This document shows, piece after piece, positions 26,050 through 37,733 of a stretch of DNA of 39,270 nt. The number at the start of each line of letters is the position of its first letter. Position 1 is the first letter of the stretch. The DNA is taken from IMG/VR virus record IMGVR_UViG_3300027985_001017, positions 1-39,270 of that record; one strand, 5' to 3'. The notes beneath the pieces were generated by a model that did not search any database, had not been told where the DNA came from, and was given only the letters and a program-made list of their open reading frames with translations. Both the position numbers and the translations under genes were made by a program. This DNA comes from a virus.

Positions 26050-26292
26050 TTATGCCGCCTTTCGTTCCATTTGTACAAGCTCAGGCCATATCTGATCCCA
26101 GTCATCACGAAGCTCTGGCCTGGTCACTTGTTTCTCGGACTCTCGCTCGATCGCTACAGCCAAGCGTGGTCCACACGGCTTTACGCCATAGGAAACCATC
26201 TTCAGATAGCCGTAACTGGTTCCGCAGCGACGAGCAAACGCCAACCGATCTTCTTCAGATCGAATCGTTTTAATGAAGTCTTTAAGTTTCAT
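26050..26292 (-). CDS. Cro/YdaS-like repressor, 80 aa
   Basis: ATG 26290-26292 gives MKLKDFIKTIRSEEDRLAFA followed by RRCGTSYGYLKMVSYGVKPC, the helix-turn-helix of YdaS/Cro-type proteins (short N-terminal helix, 'A.RCGTS.GYL...' recognition region). The C-terminal half, TRPELRDDWDQIWPELVQ, is also typical of YdaS. It is transcribed leftward, away from the CI-like gene, with shared operators between them. No ribosome-binding site is seen, and the predicted transcript start is about 2 nt before the ATG, so the mRNA may be leaderless. It should favour lytic growth. Confidence 0.85.
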   Translation of the reverse strand: MKLKDFIKTIRSEEDRLAFARRCGTSYGYLKMVSYGVKPCGPRLAVAIERESEKQVTRPELRDDWDQIWPELVQMERKAA

Positions 26293-26300
26293 GGAATGCG

Positions 26301-26329
26301 ATAATACCCATGTGGGTACTTTCCTGCAA
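26301..26329 (-). promoter_or_regulatory. Leftward switch promoter (pR-like) for cro
   Basis: On the minus strand TTGCAG (26324-26329) and TATTAT (26301-26306) are separated by exactly 17 bp. The predicted start lies near 26294, next to the cro ATG. Operator O1 overlaps the -10 and spacer, and O2 abuts the -35, so repressor bound at either site would block polymerase. Confidence 0.72.
26305..26318. promoter_or_regulatory. Switch operator O1
   Basis: The site is TACCCATGTGGGTA, with perfect 6-base arms TACCCA/TGGGTA around TG. It overlaps the cro promoter -10. It is the best match to the consensus built from O1, O2 and the KilA-N site at 28662. Confidence 0.8.
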
Positions 26330-26343
26330 TACCCACATGGGGG
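26330..26343. promoter_or_regulatory. Switch operator O2
   Basis: The site is TACCCACATGGGGG, 12 of 14 bases matching O1 when inverted. Its centre is 25 bp from O1 and it abuts the cro -35. A further half site TGGGTA at 26353-26358 may be a weaker third operator near the CI-side promoter. Confidence 0.75.
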
Positions 26344-26344
26344 C

Positions 26345-26374
26345 TTACCTCGTGGGTATCCTTTTTCCCATAAT
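26345..26374 (+). promoter_or_regulatory. Candidate rightward promoter (pRM-like) for the CI operon
   Basis: CATAAT at 26369-26374 is a fair -10, with a weak -35 TTACCT at 26345-26350 (18-bp spacer). The predicted start is close to the CI ATG at 26381, which lacks a ribosome-binding site, so a leaderless message like lambda cI from pRM is likely. The weak -35 would fit activation by repressor bound nearby. Confidence 0.5.
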
Positions 26375-26380
26375 GTGCCT

Positions 26381-26758
26381 ATGAAACCCCATAACATCAG
26401 ACGCCGGAATCTCCGCGCCATTATTGAAAGGCAATTTGACGGGAAAGCTGGTCGCCTGGCTGACGCAATTGGGAAAAAGCGCCCGCAAATCTATCGACTG
26501 TTTTCCGACGCGGAAAACAGTCGTGACATAGGGGAAGAACTGGCACGAGATATTGAGAACAGACTCGGCCTACCTTACGGATCCCTAGACAAAGAAGAAA
26601 TGGCTAACGACGAAGCGAACCAGATTGCACAAAAGTACGAAAAGAGCAGCGAAGAAAAGCGAACTGCGATGAAGTCTCTTGCTGATCTCCCGGATGACGC
26701 GTCCGCCGACCTTCAACCTATCCTTGACGCCTTCAAAGCAAAGTACGGAATAAAATGA
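26381..26758 (+). CDS. CI-like repressor, short form without peptidase domain, 125 aa
   Basis: ATG 26381 gives MKPHNIRRRNLRAIIERQFD, then GKAGRLADAIGKKRPQIYRL, a helix-turn-helix of the CI/XRE type where 'GKAGRLADAIGKKRPQIYRLF' holds the two helices. A C-terminal acidic helical part (QIAQKYEKSSEEKRTAMKSL to the end) may dimerise. There is no S24 autocleavage domain (no Ser-Lys pair), unlike lambda CI, so induction must work by another route. It is divergent from cro and starts an operon coupled by ATGA to the nucleotidyltransferase gene. Confidence 0.82.
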   Translation: MKPHNIRRRNLRAIIERQFDGKAGRLADAIGKKRPQIYRLFSDAENSRDIGEELARDIENRLGLPYGSLDKEEMANDEANQIAQKYEKSSEEKRTAMKSLADLPDDASADLQPILDAFKAKYGIK

Positions 26759-27210
26759 GCAAGACAGACTGGCCAGCCCTGTTCCCCCCAGGAATCCACT
26801 CAATGACACTGGACCAGCTCGAAAAATCAACCCTTTCCGGAGCACTAGCGACTCCGCGGCGTGTAGAACTTTTCGCTAGGCTCACAGTCTTCCTGAAAAT
26901 GCTCATAGCCACAGGATGCCGTGCAAACATCTGGCTTGACGGATCATTTACTACAGCGAAACCTGATCCGAGTGATATTGATGTTGCTGTTTTTATCTTC
27001 CCTGAAAGTTTTAAGTCATTCAACGCTGAACAAGAAGCAGCATTAGAGGCATTACTCGATCGTCCGACCGCGCTTGAGCGCTTCGGCTTAGACGTCTATG
27101 TTGAAGAGCACGGAGAGTTTCACCGCGCCGCCTACTGGAAAGGCATATTTGGTTTTTGCCACGATGAAGTCTCCCCGAAGGGGATTGCTGCCGTAGAATG
27201 CGCGCCATGA
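26755..27210 (+). CDS. Pol-beta-type nucleotidyltransferase (DUF6932-like), 151 aa
   Basis: A minimal nucleotidyltransferase signature is present: 'NIWLDGSFTTAKPDPSDIDV' with Gly-Ser and two catalytic Asp in DID (about residues 61-75), and a third likely carboxylate in 'ERFGLDVYVEE' (about residue 112). The N-terminus MSKTDWPALFPPGIHSMTLD followed by 'RVELFARLTVFLKMLI' resembles the DUF6932 family. ATG 26755 overlaps the CI stop (ATGA), and its own TGA overlaps the next ATG. It is expressed with the repressor, so it is made in lysogens. Enzymes of this fold act as antitoxins (MNT), toxins or second-messenger makers; which one is unknown. Confidence 0.75.
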   Translation: MSKTDWPALFPPGIHSMTLDQLEKSTLSGALATPRRVELFARLTVFLKMLIATGCRANIWLDGSFTTAKPDPSDIDVAVFIFPESFKSFNAEQEAALEALLDRPTALERFGLDVYVEEHGEFHRAAYWKGIFGFCHDEVSPKGIAAVECAP

Positions 27211-28151
27211 AAAATATTGCCTGGATCGAGAAACAGATCGAGACCATCTCCGGCTTTCTGGCCGAAGATGAGGCAAAGGCACGTGCTCATCCCGTTGATT
27301 TTGCCGCACGCCTAGTGGCGAAGAACAAACGACAACACCTTGACAGCCTTCGTCATGATCTGCTCCTGGCTCAATCCGCGCGCAACAAGGAAGTCATGGA
27401 ACTGCGGTTTGTCGGACAGCACATGGACCGAGGCGCGATCCCGCTGCGGTTCTTGGCAAAGATCGCCGATCCATTGCACAAACTTCTCTCTGCCAGCGCC
27501 TATCACATCCGCCACGGTAAAGATTTTTCACATGGGCTCCCCGCCTCGTGGAACAGCATTCTTGATTTGCGGCTCGCCGCGATCGGTTATGGCTCGACCC
27601 GTCTTTTCCTGACAGGAAACGTCACCCCCGATCTGGCCGGAGATTCGGCGCTCCAAGACGGTTTAAATGAAATATTCAACCTGCTCAACGCCAAGTCAGA
27701 AGACTTATTCTATTCAATCCACAGAATCGGCCCCGCTGCTGCTCGTGGACTAACCGATTTTCTGATCGAGGTTGAAAAAGAACAAACAGCCGCGGAGTTT
27801 TCATGGACGGCCCCTGATGATGCACAAAAACGCTGGGAAGGGCGACTGGATGAAATCATTCGGCTACGCGCAATCCTTGAGTCCACGACGGAAACAGCCA
27901 CCACGATCAATGAACAACTTGTCGGCATTGTGACATTGCTTTCCGACACAGGGAGAGTCGACATTGTTCCTGACGGATCCAGCGCGAAAATACGAATTAC
28001 CTACCCAAAAAGTTGTCACGAATGGGTCGCTGGCGTTTCTTTGCATCAACGGATTCATGTGGATGTGGAAAAAACAACCTGCTTTGACAGAACAAGCGAA
28101 ACTGAAAAAAGCACTTATTCCCTGACAGGCCCGGTTTCCAAAGTGAGCTGA
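27207..28151 (+). CDS. Unknown 314-aa protein coupled to the nucleotidyltransferase
   Basis: ATG 27207 overlaps the stop of the nucleotidyltransferase (ATGA). The N-terminal 60 residues are a charged helix (NIAWIEKQIETISGFLAEDE onward). The middle has 'IPLRFLAKIADPLHKLLSAS' and 'DLRLAAIGYGSTRLFLTGNV' followed by 'TPDLAGDSALQDGLNEIFNL'. The C-terminal third is beta-rich. No transmembrane segment and no known domain are visible. Being welded to CI and the nucleotidyltransferase, it is probably the partner (substrate, effector or toxin/antitoxin) of that enzyme. I do not recognise its family. Confidence 0.75.
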   Translation: MKNIAWIEKQIETISGFLAEDEAKARAHPVDFAARLVAKNKRQHLDSLRHDLLLAQSARNKEVMELRFVGQHMDRGAIPLRFLAKIADPLHKLLSASAYHIRHGKDFSHGLPASWNSILDLRLAAIGYGSTRLFLTGNVTPDLAGDSALQDGLNEIFNLLNAKSEDLFYSIHRIGPAAARGLTDFLIEVEKEQTAAEFSWTAPDDAQKRWEGRLDEIIRLRAILESTTETATTINEQLVGIVTLLSDTGRVDIVPDGSSAKIRITYPKSCHEWVAGVSLHQRIHVDVEKTTCFDRTSETEKSTYSLTGPVSKVS

Positions 28152-28174: not shown

Positions 28175-28609
28175 ATGAAACGCTTTGTTTTTATGTTTTT
28201 TTTGCTCCCTACCATAACTTATGCCCAGGTCTATAAGTGTTTAGAGAACGGGCGAACGATCTACGCTGAAAGACCGTGCTCAAAGACTGCACAAGCCTTG
28301 AACATCAATTCGTCGGTTACCGAGGAGCAGCGACAGCAAGCGATTGATTCCGCGCGGCGACAAAAACAGCTTTCAAACGAAAATGACTATGATGCTGCCG
28401 TAGATCGGCTCGCACGAACCAAACAGGCTGCAGCGCAAAACGCCGCAGATTCTGCAAAAAAGCGACGATGCGACAACCTTCTCAGGAAAGCCAAAGACGC
28501 GAAGGATGAATCCCATAAATGGCGCTATCACCAGGGATTGATCGACGATGCGAAACGCCGCCAGAAAGAAGCGGAAGACGCCCACTTCAGCGAGTGCTAC
28601 GGACAGTAA
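28175..28609 (+). CDS. Secreted DUF4124 protein, 144 aa
   Basis: A signal peptide (MKRFVFMFFLLPTITYAQ, cut likely after TYA) is followed by the DUF4124 core 'VYKCLENGRTIYAERPCSKT', and then a long charged coiled coil (QRQQAIDSARRQKQL onward) with a Cys pair near the end. DUF4124 proteins are periplasmic or surface-bound in many beta- and gammaproteobacteria. AAGGA precedes the ATG by 6 nt. It sits 23 bp after the 314-aa gene, with no terminator between, so it is probably the fourth gene of the lysogenic operon and could change the cell envelope of the lysogen. Confidence 0.82.
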   Translation: MKRFVFMFFLLPTITYAQVYKCLENGRTIYAERPCSKTAQALNINSSVTEEQRQQAIDSARRQKQLSNENDYDAAVDRLARTKQAAAQNAADSAKKRRCDNLLRKAKDAKDESHKWRYHQGLIDDAKRRQKEAEDAHFSECYGQ

Positions 28610-28622
28610 CTGAGAGATTCAT

Positions 28623-28648
28623 AAAAAAACCGCTTCGGCGGTTTTTTT
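28623..28648. terminator. Rho-independent terminator closing the lysogenic operon
   Basis: A perfect stem AACCGC/GCGGTT (CCGC-TTCG-GCGG core, 28630-28641) is flanked by seven As on one side and seven Ts on the other. It can work in both directions, separating the CI operon from the KilA-N promoter. Confidence 0.92.
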
Positions 28649-28661
28649 ATATTCGAAACAG

Positions 28662-28734: not shown

Positions 28735-29448
28735 ATGGAACAAATACTCATCATCGGCGGAACGAAAATCCGCACCAATAAAACTGGACTGGTTTCGCTG
28801 ACGGATATCTACGCAGCTGCGGAACGCGACGGACACGCAGAAGGAAAACGTGACCCGCGCCGCTGGAAATTACAAGATGGAGCGCAGTTCATCGAGTTTG
28901 CTGTAGCTACGCTAAATGTCCCGCAACGGGACATTTACCGGGCAACAAAAGGAAAAGGCGGAGGAACATTCGCTCACTGGCAGATTGCGCTGGCCTATGC
29001 GAAATATCTGTCGCCGGCGCTGCACATGCAGGTCAATGAGGTTTACGCGCGATTCAAGTCCGGCGATGTGACGCTAGCCGAAGAGATTGCCGACCGCGCC
29101 AGTCCGGAAGACCAGGAGCGCCATGCCAAGCGGATGGCCGGGAAGGTTGCCCGCAACCAACTGACGTCAACGCTGGCCTGCCATGGCGTGAGCGGCAAGG
29201 GTTTCGCTGACTGCACGAATGCGATTTACAAACCGATTCTTGGCGGGAAGAAGTCGGACATCTGCGCGCAGCGGCATCTTCCACAGAAAACCAACATGCG
29301 CGACGTAATGGATCTGGAACAACTCACCCGCACCGCTCTGGCCGAGATCGTCGCAAAGAAGCGTATCGAGCGCTTCGACGTGCGCGGTAATGCGCTGTGT
29401 GCGACGGAATGCCACCGGGCAGCGTTGAGCGTTGCTGCGATTCAGTAA
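28735..29448 (+). CDS. KilA-N domain protein, 237 aa
   Basis: The N-terminal half is a KilA-N DNA-binding domain: 'KTGLVSLTDIYAAAERDGHA', 'RRWKLQDGAQFIEFAVATLN' and the diagnostic 'GGTFAHWQIALAYAKYLSPA' followed by 'LHMQVNEVYARFKSGD'. The C-terminal half (residues about 125-237, 'MAGKVARNQLTSTLACHGVS' and on) is a second helical domain found in phage antirepressor-type proteins. AAGGA precedes ATG 28735. As first gene of the early rightward operon, it may be an antirepressor or an anti-host regulator. Control is likely by CI/Cro through the operator at 28662. Confidence 0.85.
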   Translation: MEQILIIGGTKIRTNKTGLVSLTDIYAAAERDGHAEGKRDPRRWKLQDGAQFIEFAVATLNVPQRDIYRATKGKGGGTFAHWQIALAYAKYLSPALHMQVNEVYARFKSGDVTLAEEIADRASPEDQERHAKRMAGKVARNQLTSTLACHGVSGKGFADCTNAIYKPILGGKKSDICAQRHLPQKTNMRDVMDLEQLTRTALAEIVAKKRIERFDVRGNALCATECHRAALSVAAIQ

Positions 29449-33773: not shown

Positions 33774-35381
33774 ATGGACAAAGGACGAGTATACAGCTAT
33801 CTCCGCTTCTCGGATCCAAAACAGGCGGCCGGGTCGTCGGCGGACCGGCAGGCTGCCTATGCCGAGCGGTGGGCGAGCGATCATGGGATGGTACTCGATG
33901 CCTCGTTGTCGCTGCGTGACGAGGGATTATCGGCCTACCACCAGAAGCACATCAAGCAAGGCGCCCTTGGCGCGTTTCTCGCGGCGGTCGATGCGGGGAC
34001 GATCACCGCCGGCTCGGTGCTGGTGGTCGAGGGGCTGGATCGTTTGTCGCGTGCCGAGCCGGTGCTGGCCCAGGCGCAGCTCGCGCAGATCGTCAATGCG
34101 GGAATCACGGTCGTCACCGCGTCCGATGGCAAGGAGTACAACAGGAAACGGCTGAAGGAACAGCCGATGGACCTTGTTTATTCGCTGCTGGTGATGATCC
34201 GTGCGCATGAAGAGTCCGACACGAAGAGCAAGCGCGTAAAGGCGGCAATCCGGCGGTTGTGCCTCGCCTGGCAGGCCGGGACGTATCGCGGGATCATCCG
34301 CAACGGGAAAGACCCGCAGTGGGTGCGCTGGACAGGGAACAGTTTTGAACTTGTGCCTGAGCGCGCCGAGGCAATGCGCGCGGCGGTGAAGTTGTTTCTT
34401 GAAGGGCACGGCGCGCAACACATCATCAAGAAACTCGGCGAGATAGGGATCGACAAAGCGCATCTACCTGGACGCACAACCTCGATCTACAAGGTGCTGA
34501 AAAATCCCTGCCTGGTCGGGACGAAGATGCTGGCGGTCGACGGGGAGGAATTCGCACTGGCGGGCTATTACCCTCCTCTACTCGATCCGGCGGACTATGC
34601 GCGGCTGGAGGAGGCGTCGCTGCGGCGGGTGAAGCGCAAAGGGAAAGGCGAAATCCCCGGCCTGATCACCGGGCTCGGCCTGCTCCATTGCGGCTATTGC
34701 GGCGCGGCGGTGGTCGGCCAGAACCTGATGGGACGGAAACGGAAATCCGACGGCACCCCGCAGGACGGACATCGTCGGTTGATCTGTGGCGGTCAAAGCC
34801 ACGAGGGGGCGTGCTCGGTGGGCGGCAGCGTATCGGTGGTGCCCGTTGAGCGGGCGATCCTGGCATTTTGCTCTGACCAGATGAACTTGGCAGCGCTGTA
34901 TTCTTCCGCTGACCCGGCGCAGGAAGCGCGGGCGCGGCGTTCCTCGGCGCGGGCGCGGATCGCGGAGGCGGAGAAGAAACTGGCGCGGGTGACGGAGGCG
35001 TTGCTTGCTGACGACGGCGCGACGCCGATCGCTTTCGTCAAAAAGGCGCGCGAACTGGAAGCGGAACTGGCGGAAGCGAAGCGCGACGAGACGCTGGCCG
35101 AGGCGGATATTTCCCGCGCCGGCCAGGCGAGCACCCCCGCCGTCGCGGATCGCTGGCACGCGCTGGCAGAAGCGGCGCTGGCGCTTGATTACGACGCGAG
35201 GATGGCGGTGCGGCAGCTGGTGTCGGAGACGTTCGAGCGGATCGTGCTGTATCACCGCGGAATGTCACTCGACGCGGAGCCGGCACCGGTGGATCTGCTA
35301 CTGATTGCCAAGGGCGCCGGAACGCGGCTGCTGCGCATCCACCGGAAGACAGGCGCATTCATCGTGCAGGGCGACAAATAA
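33774..35381 (+). CDS. Large serine recombinase (phage integrase candidate), 535 aa
   Basis: The N-terminal domain (about 1-150) is a resolvase fold: 'VYSYLRFSDPKQAAGSSADR' with the nucleophilic Ser at about residue 13 and 'VLVVEGLDRLSRAEPVLAQA' carrying the catalytic Arg pair. Residues about 190-290 are the recombinase DNA-binding domain ('FELVPERAEAMRAAVKLFLE'). A zinc ribbon 'LLHCGYCGAAVVGQN' follows, with a second Cys pair (CGG..C), then a coiled coil (SARARIAEAEKKLARVTEAL). This is the layout of phiC31-like integrases that insert without host factors. The ribosome-binding site is weak. It stands alone and converges with the minus-strand gene after it. Confidence 0.92.
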   Translation: MDKGRVYSYLRFSDPKQAAGSSADRQAAYAERWASDHGMVLDASLSLRDEGLSAYHQKHIKQGALGAFLAAVDAGTITAGSVLVVEGLDRLSRAEPVLAQAQLAQIVNAGITVVTASDGKEYNRKRLKEQPMDLVYSLLVMIRAHEESDTKSKRVKAAIRRLCLAWQAGTYRGIIRNGKDPQWVRWTGNSFELVPERAEAMRAAVKLFLEGHGAQHIIKKLGEIGIDKAHLPGRTTSIYKVLKNPCLVGTKMLAVDGEEFALAGYYPPLLDPADYARLEEASLRRVKRKGKGEIPGLITGLGLLHCGYCGAAVVGQNLMGRKRKSDGTPQDGHRRLICGGQSHEGACSVGGSVSVVPVERAILAFCSDQMNLAALYSSADPAQEARARRSSARARIAEAEKKLARVTEALLADDGATPIAFVKKARELEAELAEAKRDETLAEADISRAGQASTPAVADRWHALAEAALALDYDARMAVRQLVSETFERIVLYHRGMSLDAEPAPVDLLLIAKGAGTRLLRIHRKTGAFIVQGDK

Positions 35382-36778: not shown

Positions 36779-36967
36779 ATGGAAGAGAAGAAAAAACGAG
36801 GAAGGCCCGCTATCCAGCCCGAACAAAGGCTTGTGCTGCGATCCATCAGGCTATCTCCAGCGCAATGGGAGAAGATCGACAAGTTCGGCCTTTCCTGGCT
36901 TCGTGCGCTCATCGACAAGGCCAAGCCGACTAAATCACATCCGCGAAAGCCTGGCGAAGAATCCTAG
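36779..36967 (+). CDS. Small ribbon-helix-helix-like DNA-binding protein, 62 aa
   Basis: From ATG 36779 the protein reads MEEKKKRGRPAIQPEQRLVL, with an AT-hook-like RGRP, followed by RSIRLSPAQWEKIDKFGLSW and a final helix. This is the strand-helix-helix plan of RHH repressors. An upstream ATG at 36755 is in frame but lies before the predicted -10. The 3' end overlaps the 3' end of the tyrosine recombinase gene on the other strand by 38 bp. It probably controls itself and the divergent PAPS reductase-like operon. Confidence 0.6.
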   Translation: MEEKKKRGRPAIQPEQRLVLRSIRLSPAQWEKIDKFGLSWLRALIDKAKPTKSHPRKPGEES

Positions 36968-37616
36968 GATCGCACTCGATATACCGCATGGTGCAGTCCG
37001 GCGAGTCATGGCCGAGAAGCTGCTGCACAACGTCCATGTCTGAGGTTTGCGAATAGAGTCTCGTGGCGAACGTGCGCCTGCCTGAGTGGCTGCTGCCGCC
37101 CTTGATTCCGGCTTTCTTGTACAGGCGCGTGATGTAGCTCTGGAGCGAATCAGCGGCCAGATACTCGCGGTATTCGCCGGTTTCGAGAATCCGTCGTTTG
37201 ACGTTCAACTCGAATTTCGCGCCCTTCCTCGTCACGAATAGCGGCAGATCGGGACGTAGTCCACGATAGGCGAGGTTTTCAGAATCGGGGAAGGTTCCAA
37301 TGCCATGATCGACACGGAAGGATAGATAGCGTTCCAGCGCCTCGATCAGCTTGGGTGATGCGAGATAGACGCACCGCTGTTTGCAGCCCTTGGTGATGGC
37401 CGCTCTCAAACTCACTTCCTGCCGTAGCTTGCCTGACGGAAACATTAGGTCGGCGATGGTGATTTGTGCCGTCTCGGTGCAACGCATCCCGCAGGACAGG
37501 CCGAGAAGAAGGATAGCCGCGTCTCGCTCGGGGTGGCGACTGGTGGCTTCGGTAACGCGGAGAAGGTGGCGGATGGCCGAAGGCGTGAGGACGGTTGCGC
37601 GCTGTTGGTCTTTCAT
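36930..37616 (-). CDS. Short tyrosine recombinase, 228 aa
   Basis: The catalytic domain is complete: Arg in 'LLLGLSCGMRCTETAQITIA', the H-x-x-R box in 'GGSSHSGRRTFATRL', a second His in 'VQQLLGHDSPDCT' and the nucleophile Tyr in 'TMRYIECDP'. The usual N-terminal arm-binding and core-binding domains are mostly missing, so it resembles XerC-like or short phage recombinases. ATG 37616 has GAGAGG 4 nt upstream; an in-frame extension to 37694 lacks such a site. It may act in dimer resolution, DNA inversion or excision alongside the serine recombinase. Confidence 0.85.
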   Translation of the reverse strand: MKDQQRATVLTPSAIRHLLRVTEATSRHPERDAAILLLGLSCGMRCTETAQITIADLMFPSGKLRQEVSLRAAITKGCKQRCVYLASPKLIEALERYLSFRVDHGIGTFPDSENLAYRGLRPDLPLFVTRKGAKFELNVKRRILETGEYREYLAADSLQSYITRLYKKAGIKGGSSHSGRRTFATRLYSQTSDMDVVQQLLGHDSPDCTMRYIECDPRILRQAFADVI

Positions 37617-37733
37617 GGTGCCTCTCTGAAAAGGTTGGGTTTGGCAACAATTCAGAGAGAGAAACCGTTCGGCTCTTTTTCGAGCATACCACAAGCAAAA
37701 GCGGGCAACCTCGGAAAGTACAACCGGGAAAAC

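What the first reader, a model, noticed from the sequence alone, without database searches (positions are those of the whole stretch)
26381..28151. Repressor-welded nucleotidyltransferase plus unknown 314-aa protein: candidate defence or toxin-antitoxin module
Three genes are joined by two ATGA overlaps: a CI-like repressor, a pol-beta-type nucleotidyltransferase with an intact GS...DxD signature, and a large protein of no known family. This is the place where temperate phages keep genes expressed in the lysogen, often superinfection or anti-phage systems. A minimal nucleotidyltransferase with a bigger partner recalls MNT/HEPN and AbiE-type pairs, yet the partner shows no HEPN motif (R-x4-6-H) or AbiEi-type helix-turn-helix that I can see. 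The region is also more AT-rich than the late genes.
Basis: partly seen in the sequence, partly recalled or inferred. Interest (0 to 1): 0.72.

Follow-up and report, generated by a model that had tools for sequence, protein, structure and literature searches.

The report
Prophage nucleotidyltransferase pair, candidate defence PDC-M63
Next to its own repressor gene this dormant virus carries a small two-gene unit, an intact nucleotide-transferring enzyme plus a larger partner, which recurs as a pair across bacteria and archaea and is already catalogued, but not proven, as an anti-virus defence system.

Summary
A 125-aa repressor, a 151-aa pol-beta nucleotidyltransferase (A) and a 314-aa protein (B) are joined by two ATGA overlaps in an AT-rich immunity region. 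The partner is not of "no known family": A and B match the PADLOC candidate defence pair PDC-M63A/B (1.6e-39, 1.1e-77). A is Pfam DUF6932. The pair is conserved: B follows A in 176 of 235 A loci, usually with the same 4-base overlap, in Pseudomonadota, Bacillota, Bacteroidota, archaea and others. In lambdoid phages it sits directly after cI, the rexAB position. B is predicted (pLDDT 93) as helical hairpin, unrecognised alpha/beta core and C-terminal OB fold, with no conserved HEPN motif. The core and OB recur in DUF6575 proteins, one in a PD-T4-10-like operon; weaker core similarity reaches PDC-M32A and PDC-M02B, the latter paired with a DUF4365 protein. Best reading: a lysogen-expressed toxin-antitoxin-like or abortive-infection module in which an active NTase is controlled by, or controls, B. 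Which gene is the toxin is undecided; I lean to A. The only published test found (E. coli NILS69, virulent phages) saw no defence. New member of a catalogued but unproven kind.

The parts
26303..26359 (.). operator-like repeats between divergent cro-like and repressor genes: palindrome TACCCATGTGGGTA, a second copy TACCCACATGGG and a third half-site CGTGGGTAT
   Evidence: perfect 12-nt inverted repeat 26307-26318 / 26330-26341 and further arms
26369..26374 (+). candidate -10 box CATAAT, ending 7 nt before the repressor ATG, suggesting a near-leaderless repressor transcript like lambda PRM (inference)
   Evidence: sequence; the consensus promoter scan reported none
26381..26758 (+). CI-like repressor, 125 aa, helix-turn-helix, no S24 peptidase match
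   Evidence: phrog_5736 1.2e-10, phrog_12107 1.9e-10
26755..27210 (+). gene A: DUF6932 pol-beta-type nucleotidyltransferase, PDC-M63A, 151 aa, intact GS...DxD and third Asp D113
   Evidence: PF22014 1.5e-28, PDC-M63A 1.6e-39; model pLDDT 96.7; nearest solved folds include MNT antitoxins
27207..28151 (+). gene B: PDC-M63B, 314 aa (helical hairpin 4-60, core 61-229, OB fold 232-306)
   Evidence: PDC-M63B 1.1e-77, phrog_6603 1.2e-54; model pLDDT 93.3; OB hits
28175..28609 (+). small DUF4124-domain protein with a signal-like start, likely last gene of the repressor operon; not part of the conserved pair
   Evidence: PF13511 7.3e-07; no + strand terminator found between B and it
28621..28650 (+). 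intrinsic terminator that ends the operon
   Evidence: 13-bp stem, TTCG loop, U tract, -15.2 kcal/mol, z -4.65

Best explanation
The pair is a prophage-borne member of the PDC-M63 candidate defence family: a two-gene toxin-antitoxin-like or abortive-infection (superinfection exclusion) module, co-transcribed with the repressor and so expressed in the lysogen. Shown: an intact, conserved NTase (A); a translationally coupled partner (B) that recurs with it, predicted as helical hairpin, alpha/beta core and OB fold; the same site right after cI in other lambdoid phages; a B core and OB shared with DUF6575 proteins, one in a PD-T4-10-like operon. Inferred: A and B form a complex through B's N-terminal hairpin. 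The core and OB part of B responds to something made or exposed in infection (nucleic acid or a nucleic-acid-bound protein is the natural guess for an OB fold). The complex then changes state so that A transfers nucleotides to a target and infection is aborted. I favour A as effector and B as regulator over the MNT-like reverse (A modifies and silences a toxic B) by about 55 to 45. The confidence given is for a defence or toxin-antitoxin-like module, whichever the polarity.
For: PADLOC PDC-M63A/B match both genes. B lies downstream of 176 of 235 A hits, 126 with the ATGA overlap, 106 distinct B. The pair sits directly after cI in mEpX1, PhiR30_1, Erwinia phage 59 and a Klebsiella prophage; 22 of 50 distinct viral loci have an upstream homologue of five known repressors, others an obvious HTH gene. 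Catalytic-type residues are conserved, including D113 (92%), R36 and K142, which the DNA pattern did not impose. The core HMM finds DUF6575-type proteins at 1e-33 to 1e-37; one has a PD-T4-10_A homologue overlapping upstream, and PD-T4-10 is a validated abortive TA system (PMC9519451). For A as effector: B has almost no invariant polar residues; M02B, with a core-like stretch, follows a DUF4365 protein; other DUF6932 genes pair only with a 70-100 aa helical protein or an HTH protein. Neighbours in bacterial genomes include type I RM genes and integrases.
Against: Deleting PDC-M63AB in E. coli NILS69 did not change infection by the tested virulent phages (PMC12409345). PADLOC membership is itself a computational prediction. 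PD-T4-10 biology (B toxic, A antitoxin) and MNT/HEPN precedent point to the opposite polarity. The canonical PD-T4-10B C-terminus shows no sequence similarity to the core. The hairpin relationship between B and the small DUF6932 partners is weak (hhalign probability 36%). The neighbour analysis had no control set, and nothing here measures toxicity, complex formation or defence.
Confidence: 0.62

Rival explanations
1. MNT-like polarity (a sub-case of the toxin-antitoxin reading, stated as a rival to A as effector): A is the antitoxin, nucleotidylating (for example AMPylating) B to keep it inactive; B is the toxin, acting through its core and OB domain on nucleic acid or translation.
For: A's best solved fold matches include MNT antitoxins 2rff, 7ae9 and 6m6u; MntA silences HepT by adenylylation (PMC7641770); in PD-T4-10 the downstream gene is the toxin and a PD-T4-10-like operon carries B's core and OB in that position.
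Against: B has no conserved HEPN motif and few invariant polar residues; Foldseek E-values for A are weak (0.025-0.3); other DUF6932 genes go with a 70-100 aa partner unlikely to be an enzyme.
Confidence: 0.28
2. A lysogenic-conversion or regulatory module unrelated to defence: A modifies a host or phage regulator and B is a nucleic-acid-binding accessory that tunes lysogeny.
For: Operon position with the repressor; DUF6932 genes elsewhere pair with XRE-HTH or ImmA/IrrE proteins, typical of regulators; the one defence test was negative.
Against: The pair also occurs outside phages, sometimes beside RM genes, and at other phage sites such as next to spanin-like genes, which suits a mobile cargo gene better than a dedicated lysogeny regulator.
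Confidence: 0.15
3. A synthesises a soluble nucleotide signal sensed by B, as in CBASS.
For: Pol-beta fold and intact active site; a CD-NTase (6e0n) is among weak fold hits.
Against: A is 151 aa, without the helical C-terminal half of CD-NTases (own knowledge); B resembles no known nucleotide-sensor effector; no PADLOC CBASS model hit.
Confidence: 0.05

Closest known systems
PDC-M63 (PADLOC-DB phage defence candidate M63A/M63B)
   Same: both proteins match nearly full length (1.6e-39, 1.1e-77), same order and overlap
   Different: nothing defining; the window proteins are divergent members (B at most 36% identical to the relatives found)
PD-T4-10 (validated abortive toxin-antitoxin system) and DUF6575 proteins
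   Same: two overlapping genes, small first gene; a DUF6575 protein with a PD-T4-10_A neighbour carries the M63B core and OB
   Different: M63B lacks the DUF6575 N-terminal domain; M63A is an NTase, not PD-T4-10A; the enterobacterial PD-T4-10B C-terminus is not detectably the core
MNT/HEPN (type VII TA, MntA/HepT)
   Same: minimal pol-beta NTase with GS...DxD, paired gene, weak fold match
   Different: MntA model far below cut-off; no HEPN motif in B; B has core and OB domains
AbiE / MenAT (type IV, DUF1814 NTase with HTH partner)
   Same: NTase plus partner, abortive infection logic
   Different: A is about half the size (own knowledge), no AbiE model hit, no HTH match in B
PDC-M02 and PDC-M32
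   Same: partial, weak sequence similarity of M02B and M32A to B's core; M02A (DUF4365) overlaps upstream of M02B
   Different: different enzymes or partners and different extra domains; similarity covers only part of the core

Membership tests
PDC-M63 | A matches M63A model | tested here: met
   PDLC04744 1.6e-39, residues 1-149 of 151
PDC-M63 | B matches M63B model | tested here: met
   PDLC04749 1.1e-77, residues 5-307 of 314
PDC-M63 | A directly upstream of B in one operon | tested here: met
   ATGA overlap 27207-27210
PDC-M63 | anti-phage activity | not testable with these tools
   candidate only; the one published test found was negative in E. coli NILS69 (PMC12409345)
MNT/HEPN type VII TA | MntA family NTase | tested here: not met
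   NF047752 14.6 bits against cut-off 60
MNT/HEPN type VII TA | HEPN partner with R-x4-6-H | tested here: not met
   motif not conserved in 81 B proteins; no HEPN Pfam hit
AbiE type IV TA | AbiEii/DUF1814 NTase and AbiEi HTH antitoxin | tested here: not met
   no such Pfam or PADLOC hit in A or B
PD-T4-10 | PD-T4-10_A and _B models | tested here: not met
   no hit for A or B; link only through the L233 bridging protein
CBASS | CD-NTase with known effector | tested here: not met
   no PADLOC CBASS hit; A is only 151 aa
pol-beta NTase superfamily | GS...DxD plus third carboxylate in a pol-beta fold | tested here: met
   G63 S64 D74 D76 D113; fold hits MNT, AadA, LinB, pol lambda (weak E-values)

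The most novel reading that the evidence does not exclude
B's core and OB region is an unrecognised shared regulator (sensor or antitoxin) of a whole set of two-gene defence systems (PDC-M63, PDC-M02, PDC-M32 and DUF6575/PD-T4-10-like operons). It would be coupled by interchangeable N-terminal adaptors to different small partner proteins: an NTase in M63, a DUF4365 nuclease-like protein in M02. The helical hairpin would be the adaptor for DUF6932 NTases.
Probability: 0.35. Interest if true: 0.72.

Novelty: new member of a known kind. Interest (0 to 1): 0.5.

Why it matters
PDC-M63 is widespread but unproven, with two proteins named only by numbers. Tying B's core and OB to a DUF6575 protein in a PD-T4-10-like operon, and more weakly to two other candidate systems, gives a concrete shared module to test. 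The prophage setting suggests which phages to test: temperate superinfecting phages rather than the virulent ones used so far.

Tried and rejected
Single-sequence scans of viral and genome collections with B found nothing, because the relatives are too diverged, and a two-sequence alignment also failed; a six-sequence alignment and a motif pattern worked. HEPN in B: rejected. AbiE, MntA, CBASS: no model support. B core equals canonical PD-T4-10B C-terminus: tested with HMM and hhalign, not supported; only the DUF6575 N-terminal domain is shared with L233. Homology of the B hairpin with the small helical DUF6932 partners and the HTH partners: weak only. Solved relatives by sequence: none for A or B. 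Near relatives of the left 24 kb of the phage among named phages: none beyond 40 bases. DUF6575 is too rare to collect many examples.

Full report
Anatomy. On the + strand the window carries a 125-aa repressor (26381-26758), a 151-aa protein A (26755-27210) and a 314-aa protein B (27207-28151), joined by ATGA overlaps. Divergently, on the minus strand, lies a YdaS/Cro-like gene (ends near 26050; likely start near 26292; phrog_35, 2e-11). Between them are operator-like palindromes. A CATAAT box at 26369-26374 ends 7 nt before the repressor ATG, which would make a near-leaderless transcript as in lambda PRM; this is inference, and the consensus scan did not report it. After B follow a small DUF4124 gene (28175-28609) and a strong intrinsic terminator at 28621-28650, so the likely operon is repressor, A, B, DUF4124. 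The region has 48-53% GC against 58-69% for most late genes. The window is a virus record (IMG/VR) of 39,270 bases with a terminase, a primase and a serine-type integrase.

Identity. A is Pfam DUF6932 (1.5e-28), phrog_9194 and PADLOC PDC-M63A (1.6e-39). B has no Pfam or NCBIfam match but is phrog_6603 (1.2e-54) and PDC-M63B (1.1e-77). In the paper library, PDC-M63 appears in one paper. There PDC-M63AB, in a prophage of E. coli NILS69, was deleted and showed no evidence of defence against the phages tested, all virulent dsDNA phages (PMC12409345). DUF6932 appears in no paper held.

Conservation of the pair. Iterated HMM searches of all ORFs found 235 A and 176 B hits. B lies immediately downstream of 176 of the 235 A hits. 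In 126 of 176 the B start overlaps the A stop by four bases, as here. Some loci overlap between scans, so these are not all independent; 106 B sequences are distinct, in 84 clusters at 80% identity. They come from Pseudomonadota, Bacillota, Bacteroidota, Chloroflexota, Parcubacteria and others, with Methanobrevibacter among the loci fetched. Of the 59 A hits without B, most belong to other DUF6932 branches, and some are cut by contig ends.

Position. In mEpX1, PhiR30_1, Erwinia phage 59 and a Klebsiella prophage the pair sits directly after cI, the site of rexAB in lambda (own knowledge). In 22 of 50 distinct viral loci an upstream gene is homologous to one of five known repressors; several more have an obvious HTH gene, and a few have spanin-like or amidase genes instead. 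The mEpX1 version is in 18 of 5,426 complete E. coli genomes. M63B was found in 2 of 369 gammaproteobacterial genomes searched, one of which was the centre of the sample and the other a more distant relative. Near the pair in bacterial genomes are type I methyltransferases (4 of 148 neighbour proteins) and integrases. There was no control set, so this is only indicative.

Structure of A. The AlphaFold2 model has pLDDT 96.7. Foldseek against PDB gives 2rff, 7ae9 and 6m6u (MNT-type NTases), AadA, LinB, pol lambda and a CD-NTase, all with weak E-values of 0.025 and above. The fold class is clear from the combination of motif and hits; close kinship to MNT is not shown. G63, S64, D74 and D76 are invariant partly because the search pattern required them; D113 (92%), R36 (94%), K142 (100%) and G143 (99%) were not required and are conserved too.

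Structure of B. From an 81-member alignment (A5) the model has pLDDT 93.3, pTM 0.83: helices 4-27 and 32-60, an alpha/beta core from 61 to 229, and a beta-barrel order from 232 to 306. The best Foldseek hits in PDB are OB folds (SSB, Rim1, LysRS), probability 1.00, E about 0.003, over about 90 residues; I place them at the C-terminus from length and secondary structure. No PDB match to the core was among the hits shown. Conserved residues are mostly glycines and hydrophobics; polar or aromatic exceptions are E62 (D/E 93%), R67 (K/R 85%), S130 (100%), E197 (D/E 79%) and W200 (91%). No HEPN motif is conserved.

Wider family of B. Foldseek against viral models gives a DUF6575 protein at 9e-15, though with a modest TM-score of about 0.4. 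The core HMM (B residues 61 onward) hits three DUF6575-type proteins at 1e-33 to 1e-37, across the core and OB. One of them, L233, has an N-terminus matching PADLOC PD-T4-10_B (1.4e-14) and a core matching M63B (9.6e-14), and is preceded by an overlapping PD-T4-10_A homologue (5.2e-6). PD-T4-10 is an experimentally confirmed toxin-antitoxin system that protects by abortive infection, with B toxic and A neutralising (PMC9519451). However, the PD-T4-10B proteins from Enterobacteriaceae (L237, L238) show no core similarity by HMM or hhalign. The bridge is therefore architectural: in L233 the M63B core occupies the place of the PD-T4-10B C-terminus. Individual B proteins also hit PDC-M32A and PDC-M02B models weakly. 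An M02B example (L244) matches the first third of the core at 7e-4, and its overlapping upstream gene is a DUF4365 protein; DUF4365 is, from my knowledge, a PD-(D/E)XK-like family.

Wider family of A. DUF6932 genes without B are mostly followed by a 70-100 aa helical protein (28 loci in one similarity cluster), an XRE-HTH protein (6 loci) or an ImmA/IrrE peptidase (2 loci). These helical proteins look like B's N-terminal hairpin, but the profile match is weak (probability 36%).

Mechanism. The recurring pattern is a small enzyme gene plus a larger regulator-like or toxin-like gene, translationally coupled. Because A keeps its catalytic site while B keeps few polar residues, and because A relatives go with very small partners, I favour A as the effector and B as sensor/antitoxin, by about 55 to 45. 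MNT/HEPN (PMC7641770) and PD-T4-10 argue for the reverse. Complex formation, target and trigger are inferences. The lysogen expression and cI-linked site suggest exclusion of other phages, so the negative result with virulent phages in NILS69 lowers but does not remove the defence reading.

Verdict. Observation confirmed; interpretation partly supported. It is a new, divergent member of an existing candidate family. The shared core/OB module is the part that would interest a specialist; it is supported for DUF6575-type proteins and only suggested for M02 and M32.

Noticed in passing
window 33774-35381 and 36930-37694: A serine-recombinase-type integrase (phrog_95, 2e-64) on + and a tyrosine-type integrase match (phrog_216, 5e-31) on - within 3.5 kb; the second may belong to the host or a neighbouring element, so the right end may include non-phage DNA.
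   Followed up: no
window 28175-28609: Small DUF4124-domain protein with a signal-peptide-like start, apparently last gene of the repressor operon; candidate envelope-acting lysogenic gene.
   Followed up: partly
window 26303-26359: Palindromic operator-like repeats between the divergent repressor and YdaS/Cro-like genes, and a likely near-leaderless repressor transcript.
   Followed up: partly
window 28735-29448: KilA-N domain protein (3e-10) downstream of the operon terminator; possible antirepressor.
   Followed up: no
L053 9934-10686, L115 3263-3982: DUF6932 NTase followed by a helical ImmA/IrrE peptidase (the L053 one similar to capP): another NTase pairing not named in the searches made here.
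   Followed up: partly
L137 903-1892: DUF6932 relative followed by a 330-aa protein with only weak B similarity (5.7e-06): a diverged or third type of partner.
   Followed up: no
L236 106-561: PD-T7-4 homologue (7e-70) next to a DUF6575-like protein with the M63B core.
   Followed up: no
L045, L058, L062 (viral loci): The pair sits after a small lipoprotein gene resembling an o-spanin rather than after a repressor, a second phage cargo site.
   Followed up: no
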